From Acidobacteriota bacterium (GTDB lineage Bacteria; Acidobacteriota; Terriglobia; Terriglobales; Acidobacteriaceae): a stretch of 11,964 bases of DNA. The DNA lies in contig JAJZDO010000329.1 of the NCBI GenBank assembly GCA_021805955.1, positions 1-11,964 on the forward strand. Direction: 5' to 3'. Numbering within the stretch: position 1 is the stretch's first letter; every line of letters starts with the position of its first letter. The notes beneath the pieces are model-generated. The model did not search any database. It was not told the origin of the DNA and saw nothing but the letters and a program-made list of their open reading frames with translations. Of this stretch, positions 230 to 11,962 are shown piece by piece. Both the position numbers and the translations under genes were made by a program.

Positions 230-1294
230 TTATGCCATTTCCAGAACCCATCCGGCCCGGAACAGCTTCAGCAGGTTGCTCGTCGCGCACACCAGCTTCC
301 ACTCGCGGCTGACATTCTCTTTGCCACGCAAGCTGAAGCGGCGAAAGCCGCGCTGTTCCTTGATCTGTCCGAAGACCGGCTCGACGATCGCCTTGCGCAT
401 CTTGTATACGGCGCGTCCAGCCTCGGTTCGCAACTTGTGGCGCATCGCCTCCTTCGGCGACGCGTCCGCAGGCGGCGGATCGCTGCTCGTCTCCACCGCG
501 CCGCCATGCTTGTCGCGGCCCGTCGCCACGTACAGGTCGACGTCCTTTACTAACTCATCGGTCACATTTGCCTCGCTGAAGTAGCCCGTGTCGGCGCTGA
601 CCTTCTCCGGCTTCCGTTCCAGATTCGCCGCGATCCGCGCGATCATCGGCAGCAATTGTTTCTTGTCGTTGGTCTCCTGCGTAACCTCGGCGGCCACGAT
701 CACCTGCGACGCGGAATCGACCGCGATCTGCGCGTTGTAGCCCTGCACGAAACTGCCTTTGTTGGCGCCATCCGGCATGATACGGCTCTCCGGATCGGTG
801 AAGTTGCGTTGCGCCGTGTCGTCTGGCTTAACCTGATCGGGATCGCGCAACTCGGGCTTGCGGCCACCCTTCTTCTTGCCGGTACGTTGTTCTTCCTCTT
901 CGCGCTCGACCAGCTTCTGCTCGGTCTCGGCGCTTTGCTGCGCGGCCTTTTCTTTGGCTTCCTGTTCCAAAGCCGCTTTGGCCTGCGCGATCTTCTGCAG
1001 CCGGCTCTCCCGCCGCTGCAACTCGGCAGGCAACTCGTCGCCATGCCGATCCTTGCCGTACTGCGCATCCTCTTCGGCATCGGTCTTTTCCGCGGCCGCC
1101 AGCAGCGCATCGATCTCCTGCTGCAGGCGCGCCTCGGTCTCGTTCATGCGCTTGTAGCTCATCGCCTTGTGCTTGCTGGCGTTCGCCTTGATCTTGGTTC
1201 CGTCGATGGACACATGGCCCAGCTTCACCAGCCCAGCTTCCGAACACAGCAGCAGGGCCTGCGTGAACAAACCCGAGAGCGCCTCGAGATGCCG
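80..1294 (-). mobile_element. IS1182-family insertion sequence remnant, transposase 5' end lost
   Basis: The segment holds the C-terminal three quarters of an IS1182-type transposase and a possible terminal sequence starting near 80. The other end is absent: at 1285-1294 the transposase frame runs straight into the beginning of a LacI-family regulator gene. The element therefore appears to be a deletion derivative, unable to move by itself without its N-terminal domain and second terminus. The left limit is a guess from the GGAGTCTGTCGGGC tract. The right limit is where the transposase-like reading frame (R-H-L-E-A-L-S) stops making sense. Confidence 0.6.
230..1294 (-). pseudogene. IS1182-family transposase, N-terminally truncated
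   Basis: This DDE transposase would cut and join the ends of its own insertion sequence. The visible frame runs from a codon for Arg at 1292-1294 through RHLEALSGLFTQALLLC to a stop at 230; the first possible start inside it is TTG at 1270 (346 aa). Likely catalytic residues are all present: Asp in VSIDGTKIKA near residue 24 of the 346-aa form, Asp in VSADTGYFSE, and Glu in IVEPVFGQIKEQRGFRRFSL. A charged, Glu/Lys/Gln-rich segment in the first half resembles the insertion seen between the first two catalytic residues of this family. Family members are usually 450-550 aa, so about 100-150 N-terminal residues, including the DUF772-type domain, are missing. I see no internal stop or frameshift. 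The upstream flank is an unrelated LacI-type gene start, so I call it a pseudogene. Confidence 0.85.
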
Positions 1295-1567: not shown

Positions 1568-2875
1568 TCAGGGTGCCTCCATACCAGTTACAGGCCTCTT
1601 CCGCGGCGATTCCCGCAAGAACAGGATGATCAGCCCCGCACCCATCGATGAAACGGCCATCAGCAGGAATCCCGACCTGGAACTACCGGTGGCCGCGCCG
1701 AGCAGACCGACCAGCCAGGCGCCGAAGAACGCCCCGAGCGCGCCACAACTGTTGATCAGCGCCATGATCTCTCCCGCGACACTGTTCGGAAGCATTTCAG
1801 GAATCATGGCAAAAAAAGTTCCATACGGCGCATAGATTGCGCCACCGGCGAGTATCAGAAATCCATATGCTGTCCAGAAGCTATGCCCGGTGGCGAAGTA
1901 AGAGCCAAGCAGCGCGGTCGCGGCAAGCATCAGGAAAGGCCACACGAAGCGCTTGCGCTGGAGTGTCCTGTCGGAGAGGTGCGAAACCAGCAGCATCAGC
2001 AGAATGGCCAGCAAGTACGGCGCGGCGCCGAGCAGGCCGGTCGTTTGGATGCTGCTGGAGGACCCTTGCCGGATGATCGTCGGCAGCCACAGCACAAATC
2101 CATAGACCGCGACGCTCCATAGAAAATATTGGACGCATAGCCACACGACGCTGCCATTCTTCAGCGCAGACCTGAAGTTCGCCGCATGAGGAATGGCCTG
2201 CTGTTCCTGCTCCAGTTGATGCTTCAGAGAATCGCAAGCAGTCTGGCTCATCCACGGCGTATTCTCCGGTCCGTCGTGAACCAGCAGCAGCCAGACGAAC
2301 GCCCAGAGAACGGATGGAATTCCTTCGTAGATGAATGTTTTCTGCCAGCCGACTGCCTGAATCAGATATCCGGTCGCCGCGGACATCCATAGAACGGTTA
2401 CGGGATTGCCGAGGAACAGCAGTGTGTTGGTGCGGGACCGCTCCGCGCGTCTAAACCAATTGGTCAGCAGGATCAGCAGGGCCGGAAGGATAACGCTTTC
2501 CGCAACGCCAAGCAAAAGGCGATCGACTGCCAGTAGCCAGAAATTCCAAATCACACCCGTCAACGCGGCCAGAGTGCCCCAGCTTAGCAGCGCAAAAAAA
2601 ACGAGGCGCGTGGCGCTGTTCCGCCGCGCATAGGCCGCGCCCGGCACCTGAAACAAAAAATATCCCAGAAAAAACAGCGCCCCCAGCAGTGCGGAGCGAG
2701 AGTTGCCGATGTGCAGCGTGGTCGCCAGGCCCGCAGCCGCGCCGAAGCCATAGTTGGTCCGGTCGAGATACGCCAGACTGTACGTGACAAAGACGCACGG
2801 TACGATATACAGCCAGCGCTTCCGCATCTCGGACTGGATACCTTGCGTAGCTCTAACTGGCGTGTTGACCATCAT
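1568..2875 (-). CDS. MFS transporter, anion:cation symporter (sugar-acid uptake) family
   Basis: This integral membrane transporter of about 435 aa probably imports a sugar acid with protons into the cytoplasm. It has the pattern of 12 hydrophobic segments expected of MFS proteins. The start reads MRKRWLYIVPCVFVTYSLAY followed by L-D-R-T-N-Y-G-F-G, the typical first membrane helix of the ACS family (hexuronate, glucarate, galactonate carriers). The loop ARRNSATRLV and the second-half loop SHLSDRTLQRKR match MFS motif A, and WFRRAERSRTNT matches the conserved helix 4-5 loop. The start is uncertain: GTG at 2908, tandem ATGs at 2875 and 2872, and ATG at 2827 all fit; I chose 2875 for its ATG and the purine-rich stretch upstream. 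It is divergent from the pentonate operon, so D-xylonate or a related pentonate is the inferred substrate. The exact substrate cannot be read from the sequence. Confidence 0.85.
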   Translation of the reverse strand: MMVNTPVRATQGIQSEMRKRWLYIVPCVFVTYSLAYLDRTNYGFGAAAGLATTLHIGNSRSALLGALFFLGYFLFQVPGAAYARRNSATRLVFFALLSWGTLAALTGVIWNFWLLAVDRLLLGVAESVILPALLILLTNWFRRAERSRTNTLLFLGNPVTVLWMSAATGYLIQAVGWQKTFIYEGIPSVLWAFVWLLLVHDGPENTPWMSQTACDSLKHQLEQEQQAIPHAANFRSALKNGSVVWLCVQYFLWSVAVYGFVLWLPTIIRQGSSSSIQTTGLLGAAPYLLAILLMLLVSHLSDRTLQRKRFVWPFLMLAATALLGSYFATGHSFWTAYGFLILAGGAIYAPYGTFFAMIPEMLPNSVAGEIMALINSCGALGAFFGAWLVGLLGAATGSSRSGFLLMAVSSMGAGLIILFLRESPRKRPVTGMEAP

Positions 2876-3021
2876 CCCGCAGCGTAACCCTTTCCCTTTT
2901 TCATGCACGTCAAGTATGGAGCCTGCCCACAGACGGCTGGCGCAAGAATCTCAGCAACCACGACAGAGGCGCTCCCCACGTTCGCAGCAGAAGGACCGAG
3001 CAATCCAAAGCTATCCGCAAA

Positions 3022-3027
3022 TATAAT
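3022..3027 (+). promoter_or_regulatory. Candidate -10 element (TATAAT) of the pentonate operon
   Basis: A perfect sigma-70-type TATAAT lies 91 bases before the dehydratase ATG. Transcription would begin around 3033-3036 and give a leader of about 85 bases. The expected -35 position (about 2999-3004, AGCAAT) is a poor match to TTGACA, which would suit a promoter needing an activator, or the match may be chance. Confidence 0.4.
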
Positions 3028-3046
3028 GGCGCTTCGTCGTTTCCGT

Positions 3047-3067
3047 CTTCTTCCTTCTTCCTTCTCA
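3047..3067 (+). repeat. Heptamer tandem repeat CTTCTTC x 2.7 in the leader
   Basis: Two exact copies of CTTCTTC (3047-3053, 3054-3060) are followed by an imperfect third, CTTCTCA (3061-3067). The surrounding leader, from about 3037 to 3072, is strongly pyrimidine-rich. If transcription starts after the TATAAT at 3022, the repeat lies in the untranslated leader, 51 bases before the start codon. Possible roles are a weakly structured ribosome standby site or a slip-prone repeat altering leader length. Chance is also possible. Confidence 0.6.
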
Positions 3068-3118
3068 CTTTCGTCACGGGTCCAGAAGTTTCATTACACT
3101 TGCAGGGAGGAGCAGTGC

Positions 3119-5101
3119 ATGGCGGTCCACGAAATATCTCTCCCATCCGTGCTGGAGACGGCAGATTTGGCGCTCAATGCAGTCGCCACGCACGCCAAAG
3201 GTCCTTCGGGTGTCCTGCCACTGACGCCGGAGATGTTGCTGACCCAGCCCTCGGGAAATCTATTCGGCTTGAGTCTGAATGTGGGCATGGGATGGGACCC
3301 GCTGCGTCTGCTAGGGCCGGAAGTATTGATCCTGAGCACACATGGTGGCTTGCGCGCCGAAGATGGCACCCCGATTGCGCTGGGCCTGCACACTGGCCAT
3401 TGGGAGGTCGGAGCGCTGGTTGCTGAAGCGGCACGCGAATTGAAACGGTTGGACGCCATTCCGTTTGCCGGCGCGTGCACCGATCCTTGCGACGGACGCA
3501 CCCAGGGAACCAGCGGTATGCTCGACTCCCTGCCATTTCGCAACGATGCGGCGATTGTGCTGCGCAGGCTGATGCGCTCCTTGCCAACCCGCGCCGGTGT
3601 CATTGGAGTCGCCACCTGCGACAAGGGACTGCCCGCCATGATGATGGCTCTTGCCTCCGCGGGAAAAATTCCTACAGTGCTTGTTCCCGGAGGCGTGAGC
3701 CTGTTGCCGGAATCGGGAGAAGACGCAGGCAAGGTGCAGACCATCGGCGCGCGGTTCGCGCAGAATCAAATCAGTTTGGAAGAGGCTGCGGATGTGGGAT
3801 GCCACGCCTGCGCCAGCCCTGGCGGCGGATGCCAATTTCTCGGAACCGCTGCCACCTCGCAGGTGATTGCCGAGGCGCTTGGTCTGGCGTTGCCGCACAC
3901 GGCGCTGGCCCCTTCCGGACAGCCAGTCTGGCTGGACGCTGCGCGGCGTTCCGCGCTGGCCATGATGCGGATGCACCAACTGCACATTGGAACACTCGAC
4001 ATATTGACGCAGGCCGCCGTGCAGAATGCGATGGTGCTCCATGCGGCCTTCGGCGGTTCCACCAATCTGCTGCTGCATCTGCCTGCAATTGCGCATGCGG
4101 CCAAATTGAATCGACCCGTCGCCGCGGACTGGGCGCATGTCAACCGGCAGGTGCCTCGGCTGGTGGATGCGTTGCCCAACGGCCCCGGCAATTATGCGAC
4201 GGTGCAGGTCTTTCTCGCCGGAGGCGTGCCGGAAGTCATGCTGCATCTGCGACGCGTGGGCCTGCTCGATACAAGCGTCCGTACAGTCTCTGGCGACACG
4301 CTGGATGCGTGCCTCGACTGGTGGCAGCAGAGTCCACGTCGCCACCAACTGAGAATACTTCTGCGCGAAAAAGACGGTATCGATCCCGACGATGTCATCC
4401 TAAGTCCCGACCGCGCCAAAGCGTGCGGACTGACACCGACGGTATGTTTTCCCATGGGAAATCTCGCTCCCGAAGGCTCTGTAGTGAAAAGCACGGCCAT
4501 CGATCCGGCGTTGGTGGACCTCAGCGGCGTCTATCGGCACCAGGGCCCGGCAAAAGTTTTCATCTCCGAAGCGTCGGCCATTGCAGCTATCAAGCAACAT
4601 CAGGTGGTGGAGGGGGATGTGCTGGTCCTGATTTGCAGCGGACCGGCGGGAGCCGGAATGCAGGAGGTATATCAGGTCACCGCCGCGTTGAAATTTCTTC
4701 CCTGGGGCAAGCATGTTGCTGTCCTCACGGACGCGCGCTTCAGCGGCGTTTCCACGGGAGCCTGCATCGGACACATTTCGCCGGAGGCGCTGGCTGGCGG
4801 CGCGATTGGAAAAATTCAAGACGGCGATCAGATTGAGATTGTCATCGACCGCGCGAATCTGGTGGGCAGCGTGAATCTGATTGGCAATGCGCGGGAAATC
4901 TTCGGTGCGGAAGAAGGTAGCCGTCGGCTGCACGAGCGTCCCTCTCGCGCCGATCTCAAGCCGCATCCCGATCTACCCGACGATACGCGCCTGTGGGCCG
5001 CGCTGGTGCAGGCCAGTGACGGCGTTTGGGGCGGCTGTGTGTATGACGTGGATACTATTCTCGCTATTTTGGAACAAGGACGAAAGGCGGAAGACAATTG
5101 A
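3119..5101 (+). CDS. yjhG: D-xylonate dehydratase, YjhG/YagF type (IlvD/Edd family)
   Basis: This cytoplasmic iron-sulfur enzyme of 660 aa removes water from D-xylonate (or a similar pentonate) to give 2-keto-3-deoxypentonate, the first shared step of the Weimberg and Dahms routes. The start ATG at 3119 follows a strong AGGGAGGAG (3104-3112) at 6-base spacing and gives the length usual for YjhG/YagF (about 655 aa); an in-frame 72-codon upstream extension is discarded. Family motifs are [16 protein letters not shown] (residues 118-133), [16 protein letters not shown] with Cys167-Asp-Lys (165-180), and [20 protein letters not shown] (228-247). The cysteines at about 120, 167 and 238 are the likely cluster ligands, and the last block separates the YjhG group from ordinary IlvD. 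Near the C terminus [21 protein letters not shown] is typical of the family's substrate region. It is the first gene of a three-gene operon, overlapping the next by 3 bases. L-arabonate or another pentonate remains possible as substrate. Confidence 0.93.
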
Positions 5102-5925
5102 TTCTTTACCGGACCATGCAGGGTCACTACCTCGAACATGTGGGCCAGTATTACCGGCTCGAAGATACCTCCTGGGACGCATTGCTCACGCGACAGGAGT
5201 TGTACGAATATCTGTCGGAGAGTATCAGGAAGAACTCGCCCATTGGAGATTCGCTGCCATGTGCGCCAGAAGCTCCCATTGAGAACCAGGAGGTATGGGC
5301 CGCCGGCGTCACCTACTATCGCAGTCGCAGTGCGCGGATAGAAGAATCGAAAGACGCGGGTGGAGGCGACTTCTACGACCGCGTGTATCTCGCCGATCGT
5401 CCTGAACTGTTTTTCAAGGCAACGCCGCACCGGGTCGCGGGCCCAAACGGCAAGGTGAGGATTCGCAAGGATGCGACTTGGACCGTGCCCGAACCCGAGT
5501 TGACACTCTGCATCAACTCACAAGCGAAAATCGTCGGCTATACGATCGGCAATGACATGAGTTCGCGGGACATCGAAGGCGCGAACCCTTTATATCTGCC
5601 GCAGGCCAAGGTCTATGACCAAAGCTGCGCTCTCGGCCCCGGTATTTTGATTGCTCAAGAGCCATTGCCACTGACAACGCGAATCAGTATTGAAATCCTG
5701 CGCGGTACGAACATGGAATTTTCCGCGTCGGTTTCGCTGGCAGATATGAAGCGCGAACCCGCTACGCTGGTCGAGTATCTGTTTCGCGACAATAGCTTCC
5801 CGAGCGGCTGCTTTCTGCTGACTGGAACAGGCATTGTTCCGCCAGATTCTTTTACACTCCACAGCAACGACGAAATCAGGATCACGATTGCCTCCATCGG
5901 GACGCTCATCAACGAGGTCGCCTGA
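5098..5925 (+). CDS. 2-keto-3-deoxy-pentonate dehydratase, FAH-fold (KdaD-like)
   Basis: This 275-aa enzyme of the fumarylacetoacetate-hydrolase fold should dehydrate 2-keto-3-deoxy-D-xylonate/arabinonate to 2,5-dioxopentanoate. The substrate comes from the upstream dehydratase and the product feeds the downstream dehydrogenase. The FAH core is visible: [12 protein letters not shown] (residues 65-76), then [11 protein letters not shown] with Glu132 and Glu134, then [20 protein letters not shown] with Asp153. These acidic residues match the three carboxylates that bind Mg2+ in this fold. The C-terminal half has the usual [16 protein letters not shown] turn. I chose TTG at 5098: it overlaps the preceding TGA (TTGA), and the resulting start MILYRT resembles the family's beginning. 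An ATG seven codons in (5116) is the alternative. The overlap points to translational coupling. Other FAH proteins act on other keto acids, but the neighbours make the Weimberg role very likely. Confidence 0.88.
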
Positions 5926-5926
5926 C

Positions 5927-7543
5927 ATGACACTCACCGGCCGATCCATCATAGGAGACCTGCCCGCGAAGGATGCCAAGCAGAGTGGAACGCATCGCGA
6001 TGCTCCCTTCTCGGCCATCAATCCGGCGACCGGACAGGTCCTCGATCCCGAATACCTGTCGGCTTCTGCGGAAGACGTCGAACGCGCCACGTCCGCAGCG
6101 GAGCAAGCATTTCCCGTGTATAGCCAATGCTCCGGCACGGAAAAGGGAGTTCTTCTTCGAGCGATTGCGCAGGGGCTAGAGGCCATCCGAGATTCCCTGG
6201 TTGAGCGCGCAAACCTGGAAACTGCGCTGCCTGTTCCGCGACTTCAAGGAGAAGTGACGCGCACCGCCAACCAACTTCGCCTGTTCGCCGAAGTTGTGGA
6301 GGAGGGCTCGTGGGTCATGGCGCGCATCGATCGCGCACTTCCCTCCCGTACGCCTGCGCCCCGGCCAGATTTGCGATCCATGCTGCGACCGCTCGGCCCC
6401 GTCGTGGTGTTCGGAGCCAGCAATTTCCCGCTCGCCTTTTCTGTTGCGGGCGGCGATACAGCTTCCGCCCTGGCGGCAGGCAATCCTGTCATCGTGAAGG
6501 CGCACCCCGCCCATCCTGGGACTAGCGAACTCGCCGGCCAGGTGATCGCATCGTGCGTTCGTGCAGCGGGCCTGCCGTCCGGCGTTTTTTCGCTGCTCTT
6601 TGACAACGGGACCACCATAGGAACCGCGCTTGTGAACCATCCGCGTGTCAAGGCTGTAGGTTTTACCGGCTCGCTCGCCGGAGGCCGTGCGCTGATGGAT
6701 ATCGCCGCAGCGCGCCCTGACCCCATTCCCTGTTACGCGGAAATGAGCAGCACCAATCCGGTCTTTATACTGTCCGGGGCATTGCGCGAACGCAGAGGGC
6801 AGATCGCGACAGATTTATATGCTTCCATCACCCTGGGCGCGGGACAGTTCTGCACGAAGCCTGGTCTGGTATTTCTCCCGCACGATGAAGCCGATGGAAT
6901 GCTCGATCAACTCCAGCATTTCGCAGAGCAATCTTCTCCGTTTACCATGTTGACCCAAGGCATCGCCGCGCAATTCTCAAGGACAGTTGCAGAACGAAAA
7001 AATTCTGGCCGCGCGCAATATCGCTCGACGTCAGACAATGCAAATATTGGCAGCCCATTCACAACTCACGCCACATTGCTAACTACGGACGCAGCATCGC
7101 TTGAAAACAATCCCAGATTGAACGAAGAAGTCTTCGGCCCATCTGCGCTCCTCGTTTCCTGCAAAGATCGTGAACAGACTTTGCGCGCCGCGGAATCACT
7201 GCAAGGCCACTTGACCGCCACAATACTCGGTACCGCGAAAGACTTCGATCGGAACCGCGATCTGGTTGCAATCCTGGAACGGAAAGTCGGCAGGTTAATC
7301 TTCAACGGCTATCCCACGGGAGTGGAGGTATCCCATGCCATGGTGCATGGAGGCCCCTACCCCGCCACTTCCGATGGCCGTTCCACCTCGGTCGGTAGCC
7401 AGGCCATTTTTCGCTTCGCCCGACCTGTCTGCTACCAGAACTTCCCCGAGCACGCATTGCCGCAAGAGCTTCGCGACAGCAACCCTCGCGGCATCTTTCG
7501 CATGGTCGATGGCAACATAACTCGCGAAAGCCTCCACGAATAG
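5927..7543 (+). CDS. Alpha-ketoglutarate semialdehyde (2,5-dioxovalerate) dehydrogenase
   Basis: This NAD(P)+-dependent aldehyde dehydrogenase of 538 aa oxidises 2,5-dioxopentanoate to 2-oxoglutarate, passing pentonate carbon into the TCA cycle. Motifs of the superfamily are present: FGASNFPLAFS with the catalytic-site Asn166, VIVKAHPAHP with the cofactor-binding Lys191, GFTGS at 245-249, the general base Glu272 in YAEMSSTNP, and the nucleophile Cys309 in GAGQFCTKPG. The AHPAHPGTS and AEMSSTNPVF forms and the length above 500 aa fit the KGSADH type found with sugar-acid genes rather than common betaine or succinate semialdehyde dehydrogenases. ATG at 5927 lies one base past the previous stop, with GAGG at 5914-5917 as ribosome-binding site. 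A longer in-frame start at 5834 is rejected because it overlaps the FAH gene by 92 bases. It is the last gene of the operon and faces the minus-strand operon across 17 bases. Confidence 0.92.
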   Translation: MTLTGRSIIGDLPAKDAKQSGTHRDAPFSAINPATGQVLDPEYLSASAEDVERATSAAEQAFPVYSQCSGTEKGVLLRAIAQGLEAIRDSLVERANLETALPVPRLQGEVTRTANQLRLFAEVVEEGSWVMARIDRALPSRTPAPRPDLRSMLRPLGPVVVFGASNFPLAFSVAGGDTASALAAGNPVIVKAHPAHPGTSELAGQVIASCVRAAGLPSGVFSLLFDNGTTIGTALVNHPRVKAVGFTGSLAGGRALMDIAAARPDPIPCYAEMSSTNPVFILSGALRERRGQIATDLYASITLGAGQFCTKPGLVFLPHDEADGMLDQLQHFAEQSSPFTMLTQGIAAQFSRTVAERKNSGRAQYRSTSDNANIGSPFTTHATLLTTDAASLENNPRLNEEVFGPSALLVSCKDREQTLRAAESLQGHLTATILGTAKDFDRNRDLVAILERKVGRLIFNGYPTGVEVSHAMVHGGPYPATSDGRSTSVGSQAIFRFARPVCYQNFPEHALPQELRDSNPRGIFRMVDGNITRESLHE

Positions 7544-7560: not shown

Positions 7561-8508
7561 TCAAAGCAATCTGTAGACCTTCGATATCGCGTCGACCACC
7601 GTGGCGGTTGTGAACAGATGGTTTTGGTCGCCGAATAATGGGTCAGGATCTCCTGGTTTCCAGGGCGCCAAACAATCACGCCTGGTCACTCGCAACATCG
7701 GCCCACTTCTCCAACTCCCATCGGACTCCTGGCCTTCCAGAAGTTCATCTATCCGCGGCCAGATGGCCTGGTCGGGCACAGTGTCCGGCAACAACAGAAA
7801 GCCCGATATGAGGAGAGCACACTCGAATGGATGTTGTGGACGGGTCTGCAGCAAAGTTGTCCGAGTAGCACGCAGGTCGATGTCCAGGTCCGCGGCTTTG
7901 AGCAACGACAAAGCCCCTTCGGTGCTATAGAGAAAAGAAGTCCACCAGAACGATTGCCATATCCCGCCAGAGGTTTTGTGTTTGCGAATATACTCGATAC
8001 CGCGATCGACGGCCTTTTTTTCGGTGCCATGCTGCGTCATCATGGCGAGGACCGCCGACGGAGTCACATCCGTATGCGAAGAGCCCCACGACCCCAGACC
8101 TGGCTGACCGCGAAAAGTAGCAAAGCCGCCGTCAGCACATTGAAAACTCTGAAGACATGCATAACTGGCCTCGCGGATATTCTTTCCCTCGAACGTCAGG
8201 AACAGAATTGCGAGCGCGGTCGAGTCTGCGTCTGAGCCGACTTCTTCGGTGTATCCCCATCCGCCGTCGAGAAAGATTCTCTCGTTAAGCCAATCCGAAG
8301 CAAGCCGCGTCGAAATCGACGCGCGCTTTTTGACTTTGGAGGGAAGACTCGTCAACCGGCTACCGACAAACGCCGTCGTCCAAACAGAGGACTGTCCGGG
8401 AGGCAGATTCCAATCGATCCAACTGCCATCGAACTGTTGTCGACTCATAAGGTAATCGAGTGAAGAGCCAAGCGCGTGTTCCAGGCTTTTCTTGCGATCA
8501 CTACGCAT
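7561..8508 (-). CDS. Prenyltransferase/squalene-oxidase repeat protein, class II terpene cyclase-like
   Basis: This 315-aa protein should fold as a single alpha/alpha barrel of the family that includes terpene cyclases and protein prenyltransferase beta subunits. QW-like repeats are visible: QQFDGSW (24-30), DGGWGY (81-86), CADGGFATF (124-132) and QESDGSW (260-266). In EEVGSDADSTALAIL (88-102), Asp93-Ala-Asp95-Ser96 sits where class II cyclases have DxDD; the middle Asp, the proton donor in known cyclases, is kept, while the last Asp is Ser. At 315 aa it is shorter than two-domain class II cyclases (about 500-700 aa), so it holds only one barrel, and no DDxxD class I motif is seen. The ATG at 8508 overlaps the end of the DMATS-like gene by 8 bases, implying translational coupling and a joint function, perhaps cyclising a prenyl chain that the partner transfers. 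A non-cyclase binding role is possible. It is the last gene of the operon. Confidence 0.75.
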   Translation of the reverse strand: MRSDRKKSLEHALGSSLDYLMSRQQFDGSWIDWNLPPGQSSVWTTAFVGSRLTSLPSKVKKRASISTRLASDWLNERIFLDGGWGYTEEVGSDADSTALAILFLTFEGKNIREASYACLQSFQCADGGFATFRGQPGLGSWGSSHTDVTPSAVLAMMTQHGTEKKAVDRGIEYIRKHKTSGGIWQSFWWTSFLYSTEGALSLLKAADLDIDLRATRTTLLQTRPQHPFECALLISGFLLLPDTVPDQAIWPRIDELLEGQESDGSWRSGPMLRVTRRDCLAPWKPGDPDPLFGDQNHLFTTATVVDAISKVYRLL

Positions 8509-9610
8509 CGGAATTGTTCGCGCCAGTCGGGTCGGGCTTCAGGTAGATGGTGGTGTACTCCTGCTGTTTTTTCCAGCCCAGCCCTAAATAGACGTGCGTG
8601 TTCACCTTGGCCGTACTCATTTGCCCGGCCAGGACTTCGAGCAGGTCGGTGTAGGCGCGTGCATCGATATTCCGAAGTGCCAGCCATCGCAAGCAGCGGG
8701 CCCTGGCCTGCGCGTCTCCCTGGAACAAACAATGACCGCAGAATTCGATCTTTACATCTGTTGGAGAATCTTTATCTGGACCAAACCCGGCTGAAAAAAC
8801 GACCGATTGTGTTGGATAAGCGCGGTCTCTTCCTAGCATCACTTCTGAGTATTGCCGGAACGCGTTCAGGTAATGCTTGCCTCCGAAATGCCGAAGCAAA
8901 GCTTCATAATAGGACACGGGTTTCCCGTACCCGCTGAGATAAATCCTGCCGTTTGGGCCCTCGTTCTGGCTAAGTGAGACCGCCATCCCCAGTGGCTTCA
9001 TATCGCTTGCCAGTAATTGCCTGATTTCCCGATGCTTTTTAAGCGCTCCAAAAGATGCCGCGAACTCCTCGAATCTGGACCAGCGCTCATTCTCCGCGCC
9101 ACTTTTTCCGTTAATGTAGATTTTCACTCCGGCCTTTCCTTCCGCCGCAAAACCGGCACCGACCCAGAAAGTTCCACCGCGATCGGGATCGATCTCGCGG
9201 GGATTCACTCTCGAAACTCTGTGGATCAGCGCAACAATGGAATCAATGTCTCCCTTCAGTTGGAGCAATGCCGACAATGCGCGCACCGTTCCCTCGATGA
9301 ATTCCCTTGTTTCGGGATAGGACTGGCTTGGATTGCCGGCCTCGCTCAGAAATTGCAACGGCATGGTTTGGTGTCCCAGGGCGAGAGCAAACTGAATCGG
9401 CGTTCCGTCGAGGTTCAGCGTAGAGGATTGTGTTGCCATCGCGACGGGACAGCCGCCCAGGGATGCGCGGCAAATCAGCTCATATGCCCGATATAATTGC
9501 GGAGACGCCTGCCCGAGCCCGAACTTTGGGATCAGCGCCTGGAGTTGGCCGCCGATGAGATCGTACCAGGAGCTGTCCGTGCCTTCGCGCGGTGGAAGGT
9601 TCTCTAGCAT
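8501..9610 (-). CDS. DMATS-type (ABBA-fold) aromatic prenyltransferase-like protein
   Basis: The predicted 369-aa soluble enzyme would move a prenyl group from its diphosphate to an aromatic ring, often indole or tyrosine in this family. The start of the ABBA barrel, LDGTPIQFALAL (68-79) then MPLQFLSEAG (83-92), resembles the conserved PxExS and LRFLxE strands of DMATS enzymes. Alternating Lys/Arg-x-Tyr residues on later strands, VKIYING (Lys163, Tyr165), GRIYLSGY (Arg222, Tyr224), VKIEF (Lys287) and EYTTIYLKPDP (Tyr356), match the basic and tyrosine pairs that bind diphosphate. The length fits bacterial members. ATG at 9610 is 17 bases past the previous stop with AAAGGGAG upstream; TTG at 9616 has better spacing, and an in-frame ATG at 9673 overlapping the preceding gene gives 390 aa. 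It overlaps the cyclase-like gene by 8 bases. Identification rests on strand motifs, so the family call is good but the acceptor is unknown. Confidence 0.72.
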   Translation of the reverse strand: MLENLPPREGTDSSWYDLIGGQLQALIPKFGLGQASPQLYRAYELICRASLGGCPVAMATQSSTLNLDGTPIQFALALGHQTMPLQFLSEAGNPSQSYPETREFIEGTVRALSALLQLKGDIDSIVALIHRVSRVNPREIDPDRGGTFWVGAGFAAEGKAGVKIYINGKSGAENERWSRFEEFAASFGALKKHREIRQLLASDMKPLGMAVSLSQNEGPNGRIYLSGYGKPVSYYEALLRHFGGKHYLNAFRQYSEVMLGRDRAYPTQSVVFSAGFGPDKDSPTDVKIEFCGHCLFQGDAQARARCLRWLALRNIDARAYTDLLEVLAGQMSTAKVNTHVYLGLGWKKQQEYTTIYLKPDPTGANNSDA

Positions 9611-9627
9611 GGCCAATCGATCTCCCT

Positions 9628-10395
9628 TTAGGCTTTCTTTTTTTTCTTGTCTGGGAGTGCCGCTTTTTTCCATCCAGACCTGACGTGCGCAGCGCGGTCG
9701 GCAGGACCATCGTCCGCCTTGGTCAGTTCAAGCGTGATGCGAGTAGGAACAGCAGCATGGAACAGAATGGCCTGTCCCGGCTGAAGTTCCAGCTTGCCAG
9801 GTTCGAAGCCGCGCTCGGAACACGCAACCTTGACGGGACTGGGCGGGCGATAGGCCGTCTTGCCGATCTTTGGATAGCCGACGATGATTTTGCCCTTCTC
9901 CTTGCCGCCCAGCGTGTTCGTAGCGGAATATGTTCCGGGCCGCAGAATGACAGCTGAAAAGATATCGTCGCCCTTCAGCTCACGGCTATCGAATGGATTC
10001 TGCTGCTTGGGATCTTCCGCAGCCTTGCTCACGCGCACGGCATACCCCCCCGCACCCGCCGAGACGTGAAACACCGCGTATCCCTTGGGGTTGACCTCGA
10101 ACTTCGTTCCCGCCTTCGCGCTCTCCCCCTGACAATTGCAGGTGCTGCCCGTGGTGCTTGTTGCCGCGGCCGCCTGTGTCGGCTCGAAGGCTGCCAGATC
10201 AATGTTCGCCTGCGCGACCGGACTGTTCTTGTCCACATTGACATAGAAGTCCGCTAGATTTTCGCCGTTCCGATACACGACGCCTCTGTATTGGCCTGGT
10301 TCCAGGAAGCGGTGTGTCACTCCTCCCAGCATGGTCAGGGAACCGCTGTCCAATCCGATTTGCGTAAAGAGATTCTGATCGAAGGTCAATTTCAT
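9628..10395 (-). CDS. Unrecognised 255-aa beta-rich protein with lysine-rich tail
   Basis: I do not recognise this protein. It appears to have two beta-rich parts: residues 1-70 (FLEPGQYRGVVYRNGENLADFYV in pieces) and about 97-228 (GYAVFHVSAGAGGYAV, LRPGTYSATN, LQPGQAILFHAAVPTRI), joined by an Ala/Thr-rich linker (72-85) followed by a Cys-Asn-Cys at 86-88. The repeated (L)xPGxY and LxPGQ turns resemble those of cupredoxin-like or carbohydrate-binding beta sandwiches, but no copper-ligand set is evident. It has no signal peptide or membrane segment. The C terminus is basic, ending in five lysines and alanine, encoded over a run of eight A. ATG at 10395 lies 2 bases past the stop of the upstream gene, and the next gene starts 17 bases on, so it is firmly inside the operon with the prenyltransferase and cyclase-like genes. 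Its role could be scaffold, carrier or binding protein; this is only inferred from position. Confidence 0.7.
   Translation of the reverse strand: MKLTFDQNLFTQIGLDSGSLTMLGGVTHRFLEPGQYRGVVYRNGENLADFYVNVDKNSPVAQANIDLAAFEPTQAAAATSTTGSTCNCQGESAKAGTKFEVNPKGYAVFHVSAGAGGYAVRVSKAAEDPKQQNPFDSRELKGDDIFSAVILRPGTYSATNTLGGKEKGKIIVGYPKIGKTAYRPPSPVKVACSERGFEPGKLELQPGQAILFHAAVPTRITLELTKADDGPADRAAHVRSGWKKAALPDKKKKKA
9638..9648 (-). promoter_or_regulatory. Candidate -1 frameshift heptamer A AAA AAG
   Basis: Near the end of the 255-aa gene the codons are AAG AAA AAA AAG AAA GCC TAA. This contains A AAA AAG in the same phase as the slippery heptamer of E. coli dnaX. A -1 shift would enter the frame of the prenyltransferase, which is open here (K-E-S-L-K-G-D-R-L-A-M), and make a fusion of the two proteins. 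A 5-bp CCTTC/GAAGG hairpin follows some 35 bases downstream, rather far for a stimulator, and no strong internal ribosome-binding site precedes the run, so use of the site is uncertain. Confidence 0.3.
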
Positions 10396-10397
10396 GG

Positions 10398-11309
10398 CTA
10401 TGCACCCACATTCGCTTGAACAATCATTTCTTGAGAATCGATGGTTGCGGCCAGATTCCGGATTGGAATTTTAACCGGGATGAGCCCGCCACTCGCCGGA
10501 AGAATCGGGAACGGATCTTCGAACTGATAGAGAGGATACTTGCTGGCGAAATAATCCGCGATTGCGGTTTCCAACAGCGAAAGCAGCCCGAATAGATTGC
10601 CCAACAGATTGGAGAGCCATTCGGCAATGCTGGTCGTGATCCCCAGCAGGTCCGTGATCAAGTTCGCGATCGGACCCAGGAACGCCATGATAATGTCGAC
10701 CGCCCAGCCCGGCAGCCACGACGGGAACAGATTGTCGATCGCGTTTGTGATCGCATTCACCAGGATGTTGTCGATCGTCGCCGGCACGTCGATCGGCGCC
10801 ACATTCACCAAGACCGGATCAATATAGATCTGCCATTGGTTCGAGTGCCCATTCAGTTCCGCGTCCAGATCGGTCCAGCCTGGAAGGCGCGCCGGATCGA
10901 TATAGTACTTCGGCGCCAAACTCGCCTTTAGGTCTGTGATCTGTGAAGTAAGACCGGATAGGTTCAGGTCCGCACAAATCGGGCCTCCAATGCAAAAGCC
11001 AGGGAAGCCCACAAGGCATCCGTTCCATGGATCTGGCACGAGGCAGAAGCTCGGAATGCAGAACCCGGGTAAGTCGAGACACAGTTTGAAGTCGAGCGTC
11101 CCAAAGACGATGTCGACGTTCTGTAACTCGATAGTGTTGTCATTGTTCAGCTGCAGGTTGCCCCCGGACAAATGCACGCTGACGGAGTAACTGGCGGAGA
11201 ACGGCCCGAAGTTGGCCGTGTCGGACTTCGAGAAGCTGAAGTTATTCTCCACTTCGTTGAACAATTGCTGGAACGCTTTCGCGGATGCGGCTATCGTGAT
11301 ATGACTCAT
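10398..11309 (-). CDS. Unrecognised 303-aa protein with six-cysteine cluster and hydrophobic C-terminal half
   Basis: I do not recognise this protein. The N-terminal 75 residues look like amphipathic beta strands (FGPFSASYSVSVHLSGG). A compact cluster with six cysteines at 77, 84, 89, 98, 106 and 112 follows and includes a near repeat, LPGFCIPSFC and FPGFCIGGPIC, 22 residues apart. The middle has YYIDPARLPGWTDLDAELNG, and residues about 180-255 are a long hydrophobic and amphipathic stretch (LFPSWLPGWAVDIIMAFLGP, then LLGITTSIAEWLSNLLGNLF). No N-terminal signal peptide is visible. The mix of amphipathic sheet and long hydrophobic helices could suit a lipid-binding or membrane-inserting protein, but this is only a guess. 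Its ATG overlaps the stop of the upstream gene (ATGA), and its stop is 2 bases from the next start, so expression is coupled with the prenyltransferase operon. Confidence 0.72.
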   Translation of the reverse strand: MSHITIAASAKAFQQLFNEVENNFSFSKSDTANFGPFSASYSVSVHLSGGNLQLNNDNTIELQNVDIVFGTLDFKLCLDLPGFCIPSFCLVPDPWNGCLVGFPGFCIGGPICADLNLSGLTSQITDLKASLAPKYYIDPARLPGWTDLDAELNGHSNQWQIYIDPVLVNVAPIDVPATIDNILVNAITNAIDNLFPSWLPGWAVDIIMAFLGPIANLITDLLGITTSIAEWLSNLLGNLFGLLSLLETAIADYFASKYPLYQFEDPFPILPASGGLIPVKIPIRNLAATIDSQEMIVQANVGA

Positions 11310-11962
11310 GGCGCCACCGTAAGAGTGATGAATATCTTCAATTGATTGTCATCAATTGAAGGGTTGTTCGGAATGGGAGGATTCGGCGTGAGTTGCGCCG
11401 TAATCGTGGCAAGGCTCAGCAGCGGAATGTCGAACAACATCGTCGATATCGGGAAGATCAGCTTTTCCTTCAACAGCAGCTCGAACGTCGTCTTCAAATA
11501 GCAGTTGACGTTGTCCGAGAGCCCCTTCGGCTTGATGCCTACGACATCCACGCTATCTACGATTCCAACCAGGGAAGGTTTCCCGCTGATAATCTGCACT
11601 CCTACGTGCGCCACCAGGTAAGCGTCCAGACAAAAACAAAGTAATCGGCGAGTGGGGGGCACCACTTCCTGCGTAGGTTGTACGTTGGTTGCTTCGCCAG
11701 GCGAAGTCGGTGTCGGCAGGAACCCCTTCAGGAACTCACTCGGGCAATCCATCCCTCCGCAGATCTGCACGTGCATGGCAAGATGCTGCTGCGGGAGCGG
11801 CGGATTGAGCACGGCCGGAAGAGTAAAGATATTTCCAGGGTAGAAGTCCACCTCTGCCTTCACCAGTTGTACGCAAAAGTTCAGGCCCACTGGGGGCGAG
11901 TCCGCGCCCAGAATCGGAACCGGACTTACGACTTTGAAAAGCGGGTTCTTATAGTCGGTCAC
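11306..11962 (-). CDS. Unrecognised cysteine-containing protein, start at or beyond the window edge
   Basis: This frame is open to within 2 bases of the window edge. A GTG at 11962 would give 218 aa (MTDYKNPLFKVVSPVPILG...), but the true start may lie outside. I do not recognise the family. It is rich in beta-type stretches and prolines, with cysteines at 30, 68, 73, 109, 111 and 154 of the 218-aa form, a low-complexity Pro/Thr segment at 81-104, and a distinctive end, PNPPIPNNPSIDDNQLKIFI. The segment SVDVVGIKPKGLSDNVNCYL followed by an amphipathic helix is well conserved in style but unassigned. Its stop overlaps the next ATG by an ATGA, so it is cotranslated with the 303-aa protein; the two share Cys content and lack of signal peptides and may work as a pair. 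It is the first visible gene of the five-gene operon. Confidence 0.6.
   Translation of the reverse strand: MTDYKNPLFKVVSPVPILGADSPPVGLNFCVQLVKAEVDFYPGNIFTLPAVLNPPLPQQHLAMHVQICGGMDCPSEFLKGFLPTPTSPGEATNVQPTQEVVPPTRRLLCFCLDAYLVAHVGVQIISGKPSLVGIVDSVDVVGIKPKGLSDNVNCYLKTTFELLLKEKLIFPISTMLFDIPLLSLATITAQLTPNPPIPNNPSIDDNQLKIFITLTVAP

What the first reader, a model, noticed from the sequence alone, without database searches (positions are those of the whole stretch)
7561..11962. Operon joining a DMATS-like prenyltransferase, a single-barrel terpene cyclase-like protein and three unknown proteins
Seen: five minus-strand genes with overlaps of 4 and 8 bases or gaps of 2 and 17 bases. Known: DMATS/ABBA enzymes prenylate aromatic compounds, and class II terpene cyclases protonate and cyclise prenyl chains. 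Inference: the pair could make a cyclised prenylated aromatic (indole or meroterpenoid type), perhaps on or with the unknown beta-rich and cysteine-cluster proteins, which could be substrate, scaffold or carrier. No peptide synthetase, tryptophanase, polyketide synthase or oxygenase is seen in the window, so the source of the aromatic acceptor is an open question and a protein or peptide acceptor is possible.
Basis: partly seen in the sequence, partly recalled or inferred. Interest (0 to 1): 0.8.

Follow-up and report, generated by a model that had tools for sequence, protein, structure and literature searches.

The report
Lipid-binding proteins paired with terpene-making enzymes
A compact set of five genes, found as one unit in unrelated soil and water bacteria, links two enzymes that look able to attach and fold a terpene chain with two proteins shaped like lipid carriers, a combination we did not find described before and whose product is still unknown.

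Summary
In detail: five minus-strand genes from 7561 to beyond the right edge (overlaps 4 and 8, gaps 2 and 17). The fifth is cut by the edge; its full length is 274 aa. The same five genes, same order and strand, lie in 11 of 12 fetched loci (the twelfth is broken by a contig end), from Acidobacteria, Nitrosomonas, Paracoccus, Pseudonocardiales and Dormiibacterota. The set is rare, patchy and co-inherited.

Predicted structures of two unknown proteins resemble TULIP lipid-binding proteins: well supported for the 303-aa protein, probable for the 274-aa one. The cyclase is a one-domain class II type like MstE (DADST motif 16 of 16). The prenyltransferase is a remote DMATS/CymD relative with a changed active site: the catalytic Glu is Gln in 49 of 49 family rows (Glu in 8 of 8 controls).

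Best reading (inferred): prenylation, then cyclisation, of an acceptor that hosts already have, with the TULIP pair carrying the product. A cassette protein as acceptor is not excluded. A second cassette pairs related enzymes with a Gly-rich protein.

The parts
11306..11962 (-). 3' part (218 of 274 codons) of a probable TULIP protein; the start lies beyond the window
10398..11309 (-). 303-aa TULIP-like protein, the most conserved gene of the set
10974..11081 (-). six-cysteine stretch C77-C84-C89-C98-C106-C112 of the 303-aa protein, possibly three cross-strand pairs
   Evidence: C84 and C106 missing together in 5 of 121 sequences and never alone; the other four in 121 of 121 (window protein plus the 120 listed relatives); strands
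11016..11036 (-). PDPWNGC hairpin tip of the 303-aa protein; Trp95 invariant
   Evidence: W95 121 of 121
9628..10395 (-). 255-aa beta-rich protein, function unknown
   Evidence: present in all 12 loci L001-L012; only a sub-threshold Pfam match (Cupredoxin_1 E=0.036); no structure predicted
8501..9610 (-). DMATS/CymD-related (ABBA) prenyltransferase-like protein, 369 aa
   Evidence: profile A2 against PDB: CymD 4.6e-10, 6zrz 1.1e-7, 7w8u 8.3e-7, PriB 4.7e-6; PF11991 not hit
9392..9394 (-). Gln94 (390-aa numbering) at the place of the canonical catalytic Glu
   Evidence: Gln 49 of 49 family rows, Glu 8 of 8 actinobacterial controls
8729..8752 (-). strand with K308, E310, C312, H314, C315 where controls mostly have S, Y, P, R, D
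   Evidence: 45, 47, 48, 48 and 47 of 49 rows
7561..8508 (-). single-domain class II terpene cyclase-like protein, 315 aa
   Evidence: PF13243 E=6.1e-14; 8pak E=1.6e-22, 8paj 1.8e-20, MstE 4e-13
8218..8232 (-). DADST acid motif (D93-T97)
   Evidence: 16 of 16 aligned cyclases (window, L001-L012, L034-L036); aligned with DADST of 8pak/8paj and DADTT of MstE

Best explanation
The operon is a self-contained, horizontally spread terpenoid-lipid cassette. Shown: its gene content, order, conservation, enzyme families and (by predicted structure) the TULIP fold of at least one partner. Inferred: the DMATS-like barrel joins a prenyl chain from the host's own prenyl diphosphate pool to an acceptor that the hosts already have (no acceptor-making gene is part of the shared cassette), the MstE-like cyclase protonates the chain and closes rings on the attached terpene, and the two TULIP proteins, possibly as a pair like the two barrels of BPI, take up the water-insoluble product and hold or move it. 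The 255-aa protein would be a third structural partner. A P450 that follows the cyclase in some hosts would be optional tailoring.
For: Order and strand conserved in 11 of 12 loci; gaps lie between -67 and +15 except in L007, where my script's start choices give -433 and -107. Pairwise distances of the five proteins correlate 0.88-0.98 over 55 pairs of 11 loci. DMATS profile matches CymD over its length; Y186, Y245 and Y377, aligned with prenyl-shielding positions, are kept in 48, 49 and 48 of 49 rows. Cyclase DADST 16 of 16, best PDB relatives single-domain cyclases including MstE. TULIP fold; the listed relatives include proteins solved with terpenoid ligands (juvenile hormone binding protein with JH, beta-carotene-binding protein; titles). 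P450 next after the cyclase in L009 and L010, and in L035 of the second cassette type. dN/dS well under 1 for all five.
Confidence: 0.42

Rival explanations
1. The acceptor is a cassette protein. The DMATS-like enzyme prenylates a side chain of one of the three partner proteins (Trp95 at the hairpin tip of the 303-aa TULIP is one candidate) and the cyclase, where present, folds the attached chain.
For: By record titles the cassette occurs in at least four phyla without a shared acceptor-making gene. W95 is invariant (121 of 121). In a second cassette type the DMATS-like enzyme sits with an unrelated beta protein and a Gly-rich protein, and in 2 of 5 such loci no cyclase was recognised beside it (in L047 the contig ends 788 bases further). 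The enzyme keeps non-enzymatic protein partners while other parts change. Peptide-prenylating cyanobactin enzymes exist (review PMC13290415, abstract and section list seen; that they are ABBA barrels is recalled).
Against: W95 is one of many invariant residues (F17, Y41, Y135, W159 also 121 of 121). The aligned position of the Glu that holds the indole N-1 in TleC (Glu106, passage of PMC4786772) is Gln here. The partners are large conserved proteins, unlike cyanobactin precursors (recalled).
Confidence: 0.2
2. The DMATS-like barrel has moved to another chemistry (other donor, metal-assisted, or no prenyl transfer) and acts with the cyclase on a TULIP-bound lipid.
For: Remodelled site: Gln94, Gln107, loss of the R257-type Arg, E310, C312, H314, C315 in most rows; the family fails PF11991 while 4 of 4 tested controls pass.
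Against: Three aromatic shield positions, K or R at 184 (41 of 49) and R at 243 (46 of 49) are kept; clear profile homology to enzymes described as prenyltransferases.
Confidence: 0.2
3. The TULIP proteins are the effectors (for example exported lipid-extracting or membrane-active proteins) and the terpenoid is only their bound ligand; the cassette serves competition or defence.
For: TULIPs are the best-conserved parts; patchy, cross-phylum spread; paired cysteines; one locus lies near a KwaB-like gene (L009).
Against: No convincing match to defence models (one row, DpdE E=0.045 over 66 residues), no secretion signal seen by eye, no toxin or immunity gene recognised as shared by the flanks.
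Confidence: 0.1

Closest known systems
Bacterial DMATS/CymD-type (ABBA) indole prenyltransferases: CymD, PriB, TleC
   Same: Profile homology over nearly the whole length; similar length; D89, W170, D320 and three shield-type tyrosines shared with the eight actinobacterial controls.
   Different: Catalytic Glu is Gln (49 of 49), R100-, R257- and Y345-type positions changed, a new E-x-C-x-H-C strand, no PF11991 hit, different gene neighbourhood.
MstE (merosterolic acid synthase; name in full recalled) and other single-domain class II cyclases (8pak, 8paj, 6ij1)
   Same: One-domain length, PF13243, DADST/DADTT acid motif, alignment over nearly the whole protein for 8pak, 8paj and MstE.
   Different: Weak sequence similarity; substrate and gene neighbours of this protein differ or are unknown.
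TULIP proteins: BPI, LBP, CETP, YceB, JHBP/Takeout, P47
   Different: No sequence match to a known TULIP family, no signal peptide or lipobox seen by eye, encoded with terpenoid enzymes. Levine 2019 (PMC6791001, abstract) names P47, OrfX2, YceB, DUF4403, DUF2140 and DUF2993 as bacterial TULIPs.
Bacterial meroterpenoid gene clusters (recalled)
   Same: A prenyltransferase plus a class II cyclase, sometimes a P450.
   Different: No acceptor-making or prenyl-chain-making gene in the shared cassette; two TULIP-like proteins instead.

Membership tests
DMATS/CymD (ABBA) prenyltransferases | Profile homology over the full domain | tested here: met
   A2 against PDB: CymD 4.6e-10, positions 18-362 of 368
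DMATS/CymD (ABBA) prenyltransferases | Pfam PF11991 above its cut-off | tested here: not met
   Not reported at E<=1 for the window protein nor at E<=10 for L036; 4 of 4 controls given (of 8 held) hit it. TIGR03429 (DMATS) gives E=0.026, below cut-off, for L036 only
DMATS/CymD (ABBA) prenyltransferases | Catalytic Glu near the acceptor | tested here: not met
   Gln 49 of 49; controls Glu 8 of 8
DMATS/CymD (ABBA) prenyltransferases | Basic residues for the diphosphate | tested here: not met
   R100-type: R in 3 of 49 (controls 8 of 8); R257-type: N/A/S/T in 37 of 49 (controls R 8 of 8); K187-type: K or R 41 of 49; K259-type: R 46 of 49. The R411-type column is no test: the controls lack R there too
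DMATS/CymD (ABBA) prenyltransferases | Tyrosine shield | tested here: inconclusive
   Y186, Y245, Y377 kept; the Y345-type position is Glu in 47 and Asp in 2 of 49, Tyr in 8 of 8 controls
DMATS/CymD (ABBA) prenyltransferases | PT-barrel fold of this protein | not tested
   both prediction jobs went to the TULIP-like proteins
MstE-like single-domain class II terpene cyclases | SQHop_cyclase domain above cut-off | tested here: met
   PF13243 52.2 bits, cut-off 26.1
MstE-like single-domain class II terpene cyclases | DxD acid motif | tested here: met
   DADST 16 of 16
MstE-like single-domain class II terpene cyclases | Cyclisation of a prenylated aromatic | not testable with these tools
   needs an assay
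TULIP proteins | TULIP fold, 303-aa protein | tested here: met
TULIP proteins | TULIP fold, 274-aa protein | tested here: inconclusive
TULIP proteins | Hydrophobic ligand in the tube | not testable with these tools
   needs protein and mass spectrometry
Known anti-phage defence systems | PADLOC model match | tested here: not met
   5 proteins, only DpdE E=0.045 over residues 15-80 of the DMATS-like protein

The most novel reading that the evidence does not exclude
A protein-borne cyclic terpene: a remodelled ABBA barrel, with a Gln/Glu/Cys/His site unlike the known members compared here, attaches a prenyl chain to a dedicated partner protein (TULIP pair in one cassette type, Gly-rich protein in the other) and a class II cyclase closes the rings on the protein, giving a lipid-carrier protein with a built-in terpenoid.
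Probability: 0.12. Interest if true: 0.93.

Novelty: new variant of a known kind. Interest (0 to 1): 0.72.

Why it matters
It would be the first case we know of in which bacteria encode dedicated TULIP lipid carriers together with terpenoid-making enzymes, and it adds two families without a Pfam match to a fold whose bacterial roles are mostly open. The altered ABBA active site asks what donor and acceptor it uses. Two named Paracoccus genomes (P. luteus CFH 10530, P. endophyticus SYSUP0003; record titles) carry the cassette, so it can be tested by gene removal. The reading that the terpene is put on a protein would be categorically new.

Tried and rejected
Rejected: (1) a canonical tryptophan DMATS, because of the missing PF11991 hit and the Gln at the catalytic place. 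(2) A wider gene cluster: in an all-against-all comparison of flank ORFs of 90 aa or more (L001-L012 and L034-L036; the close pairs L004/L005 and L009/L010 set aside; flanks of L001, L010 and L012 short), the groups that recur are a P450 (L009, L010, L035), a sigma factor (L002, L007), an MFS-like gene (L001, L002), one short pair (L002, L007), and one pair each L007/L035 and L034/L035. None is general. (3) Phage or plasmid origin: the 303-aa protein has no match in 50,697 phage records or 72,556 plasmid records, and no relative among 49 pattern matches in viral contigs. (4) Common ancestry of the two TULIP-like proteins at sequence level: hhalign probability 0.8% (shallow alignments). (5) Decayed enzymes: dN/dS 0.12-0.36 for both in the six informative pairs. 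(6) Structured RNA: none at gathering scores. (7) Inverted repeats of the transposase copy at the left edge: none of 14 bases or more in 1-1500.

Limits: the genome scan needs two conserved peptide patterns, so distant relatives of the 303-aa protein were out of reach. In one search at most 5 candidates per genome were scored; G184 was in that sample without a match, although its DMATS-like ORF scores 1.5e-17 with A2, so the tallies are lower bounds. G289 (L036) has both enzymes and part of the 255-aa gene at a contig end, but no 274-aa TULIP was found in that genome. DMATS relatives were capped (7,999 candidates scored); the lists show the best 120 of 652 and of 276. The 49 DMATS rows are 36 rows of A2, 12 loci and L036; the window and L001 are near-identical, and some loci may repeat A2 rows, so they are not 49 independent cases. 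Literature: 10 searches of the open library, judged by listings, with passages of PMC12419801 and PMC3227686, PMC5507252 and PMC4786772, the abstract and section list of PMC6791001 and PMC13290415: none describes a TULIP-prenyltransferase-cyclase operon. Subscription papers are not held; no primary paper on 8pak/8paj or the MstE structure was listed.

Full report
What is there. The window carries, from the left, a transposase (-), an MFS transporter (-), a dehydratase / FAH-family / aldehyde dehydrogenase run (+), and then the five minus-strand genes of the finding. The fifth gene is cut by the window edge: the contig L001 (JAKAAZ010000112.1, an Acidobacteria MAG) is 99.14% identical over 10,473 aligned bp and gives a 274-aa protein.

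Conservation. A scan of the genome contigs with the 303-aa family (alignment A1, 37 rows) returned 12 loci. In 11 of 12 all five genes lie in the same order and strand; the twelfth, L012, is cut by a contig end and its 274-aa gene sits at the edge of another contig of the same genome. Hosts by record title: Acidobacteria/Terriglobia (5), Nitrosomonas (2), Paracoccus (2), Pseudonocardiales (2), Candidatus Dormiibacterota (1). All 12 genomes have the DMATS-like gene. Contig lengths shared between the protein hit lists, and neighbouring locus tags (VI685_02390, _02395, _02405), point to the same linkage in other metagenome contigs.

Distribution. Sampling shows it is rare. With the DMATS-like profile: 7 of 399 (class of G001; two of the seven are the second cassette type below and one, G289, is a partial locus), 1 of 248 (family of G008), 1 of 251 (phylum of G006), 10 of 249 (order of G009; two cassettes and eight weak matches that serve below as canonical controls), 2 of 125 (family of G004). 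With the 274-aa profile: 3 of 299, all cassette genomes. With the 303-aa profile: 1 of 198 (phylum of G009) and 2 of 71 Paracoccus genomes. These are lower bounds. The cassette of L007 (Terriglobia) is as far from L001-L003 (0.61-0.63 in the 303-aa protein) as from Nitrosomonas (0.64) or Pseudonocardiales (0.65-0.66), and the five distance matrices correlate 0.88-0.98 over 11 loci. I infer transfer as a unit.

The cyclase. PF13243 is passed at 52.2 bits; the best PDB relatives are the single-domain cyclases 8pak, 8paj and MstE. The acid motif is DADST in 16 of 16 proteins, aligned with DADST in 8pak/8paj and DADTT in MstE. Which Asp is the proton donor is recalled, not tested.

The prenyltransferase. 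The profile finds CymD (4.6e-10), other bacterial DMATS proteins and PriB. Aligned with eight actinobacterial controls, of which four were given to Pfam and all four pass PF11991, the 49 family rows differ at sites known from TleC (Glu106, Arg119, Lys187, Arg248, Arg378, Tyr252, Tyr317, Tyr382; passages of PMC4786772; the FgaPT2 numbers used as labels are recalled, and the mapping is by my alignment): Glu to Gln in 49 of 49, the R100-type position Gln in 42, the R257-type position N/A/S/T in 37, K259-type R in 46, Y345-type Glu in 47, and a strand with K308, E310, C312, H314 and C315 in 45 to 48 rows where the controls mostly have S, Y, P, R, D. Tyrosines 186, 245 and 377 are kept. It is homologous to the family but fails defining features, so I call it DMATS-related.

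Rates. Mean identity between six lineages is 0.61 (303 aa), 0.51 (274 aa), 0.47 (255 aa), 0.42 (cyclase) and 0.33 (DMATS-like); dN/dS is lowest for the 303-aa gene (0.02-0.15 in the six informative pairs) and highest for the enzymes (0.12-0.36). The carriers, not the enzymes, are the slow core.

A second cassette. Two distant DMATS-like hits (L034, L035) and three relatives (L047-L049) form another set. The 274-aa TULIP profile finds nothing in G108 and G247, and the ORFs of L034 and L035 give no significant match to either TULIP profile; the other three genomes were not searched. They carry a beta protein (25% identity between L034 and L035, E=6e-11), a Gly-rich protein (recognised in four of the five; in L049 the region was covered by the fused ORF in my listing), the DMATS-like protein, and a cyclase that is separate (L035), fused (L034, L049) or not recognised beside it (L047, where the contig ends 788 bases further, and L048). 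The catalytic position is Gln in L034 and L035, and by reading the sequence Gln in L048 and Glu in L047. So related enzymes recur with unrelated non-enzymatic partners.

Mechanism. The best reading is synthesis of a cyclised prenyl-aromatic lipid and its carriage by the TULIP pair. The steps of prenylation, cyclisation and carriage are inferred from families and folds; none has been assayed. A protein acceptor, a changed chemistry of the barrel, and an effector role of the TULIPs remain open.

Noticed in passing
L034:1541-4915, L035:7906-11230, L047:789-3320, L048:4881-7294, L049:3676-7401: A second cassette type in Acidobacteria: beta protein, Gly-rich repeat protein (GGNGGNGG), DMATS-like protein, and a cyclase that is separate, fused or not recognised; no Pfam match for the first two in L034 and L035.
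   Followed up: partly
L009:13907-15229, L010:4852-6174, L035:6466-7686: A cytochrome P450 next after the cyclase in three loci of two lineages (PF00067 for L009 and L035; L010 by similarity).
   Followed up: partly
L048:7291-7548 and within L035:7640-8425: A small protein with a C-x-x-C stretch (LLYRGxCxxCRxL) next to the second cassette; looks like a thiol-disulfide protein (recalled), not searched.
   Followed up: no
L009:7370-8359: A KwaB-like gene (PF16162, Kiwa defence) about 0.8 kb upstream of the cassette in one Pseudonocardiales MAG.
   Followed up: no
L002:7778-8356 and L007:8397-8969: Related sigma-70-like factors beside the cassette in two Acidobacteria, in opposite orientations (the L002 Pfam match is below its cut-off).
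   Followed up: no
window 230-1270: DDE transposase (PF01609) at the left edge; no inverted repeats of 14 bases or more found in 1-1500.
   Followed up: partly
window 1568-7543: MFS transporter facing an IlvD/EDD dehydratase, an FAH-family protein and an aldehyde dehydrogenase: resembles a non-phosphorylating sugar acid pathway (recalled).
   Followed up: no
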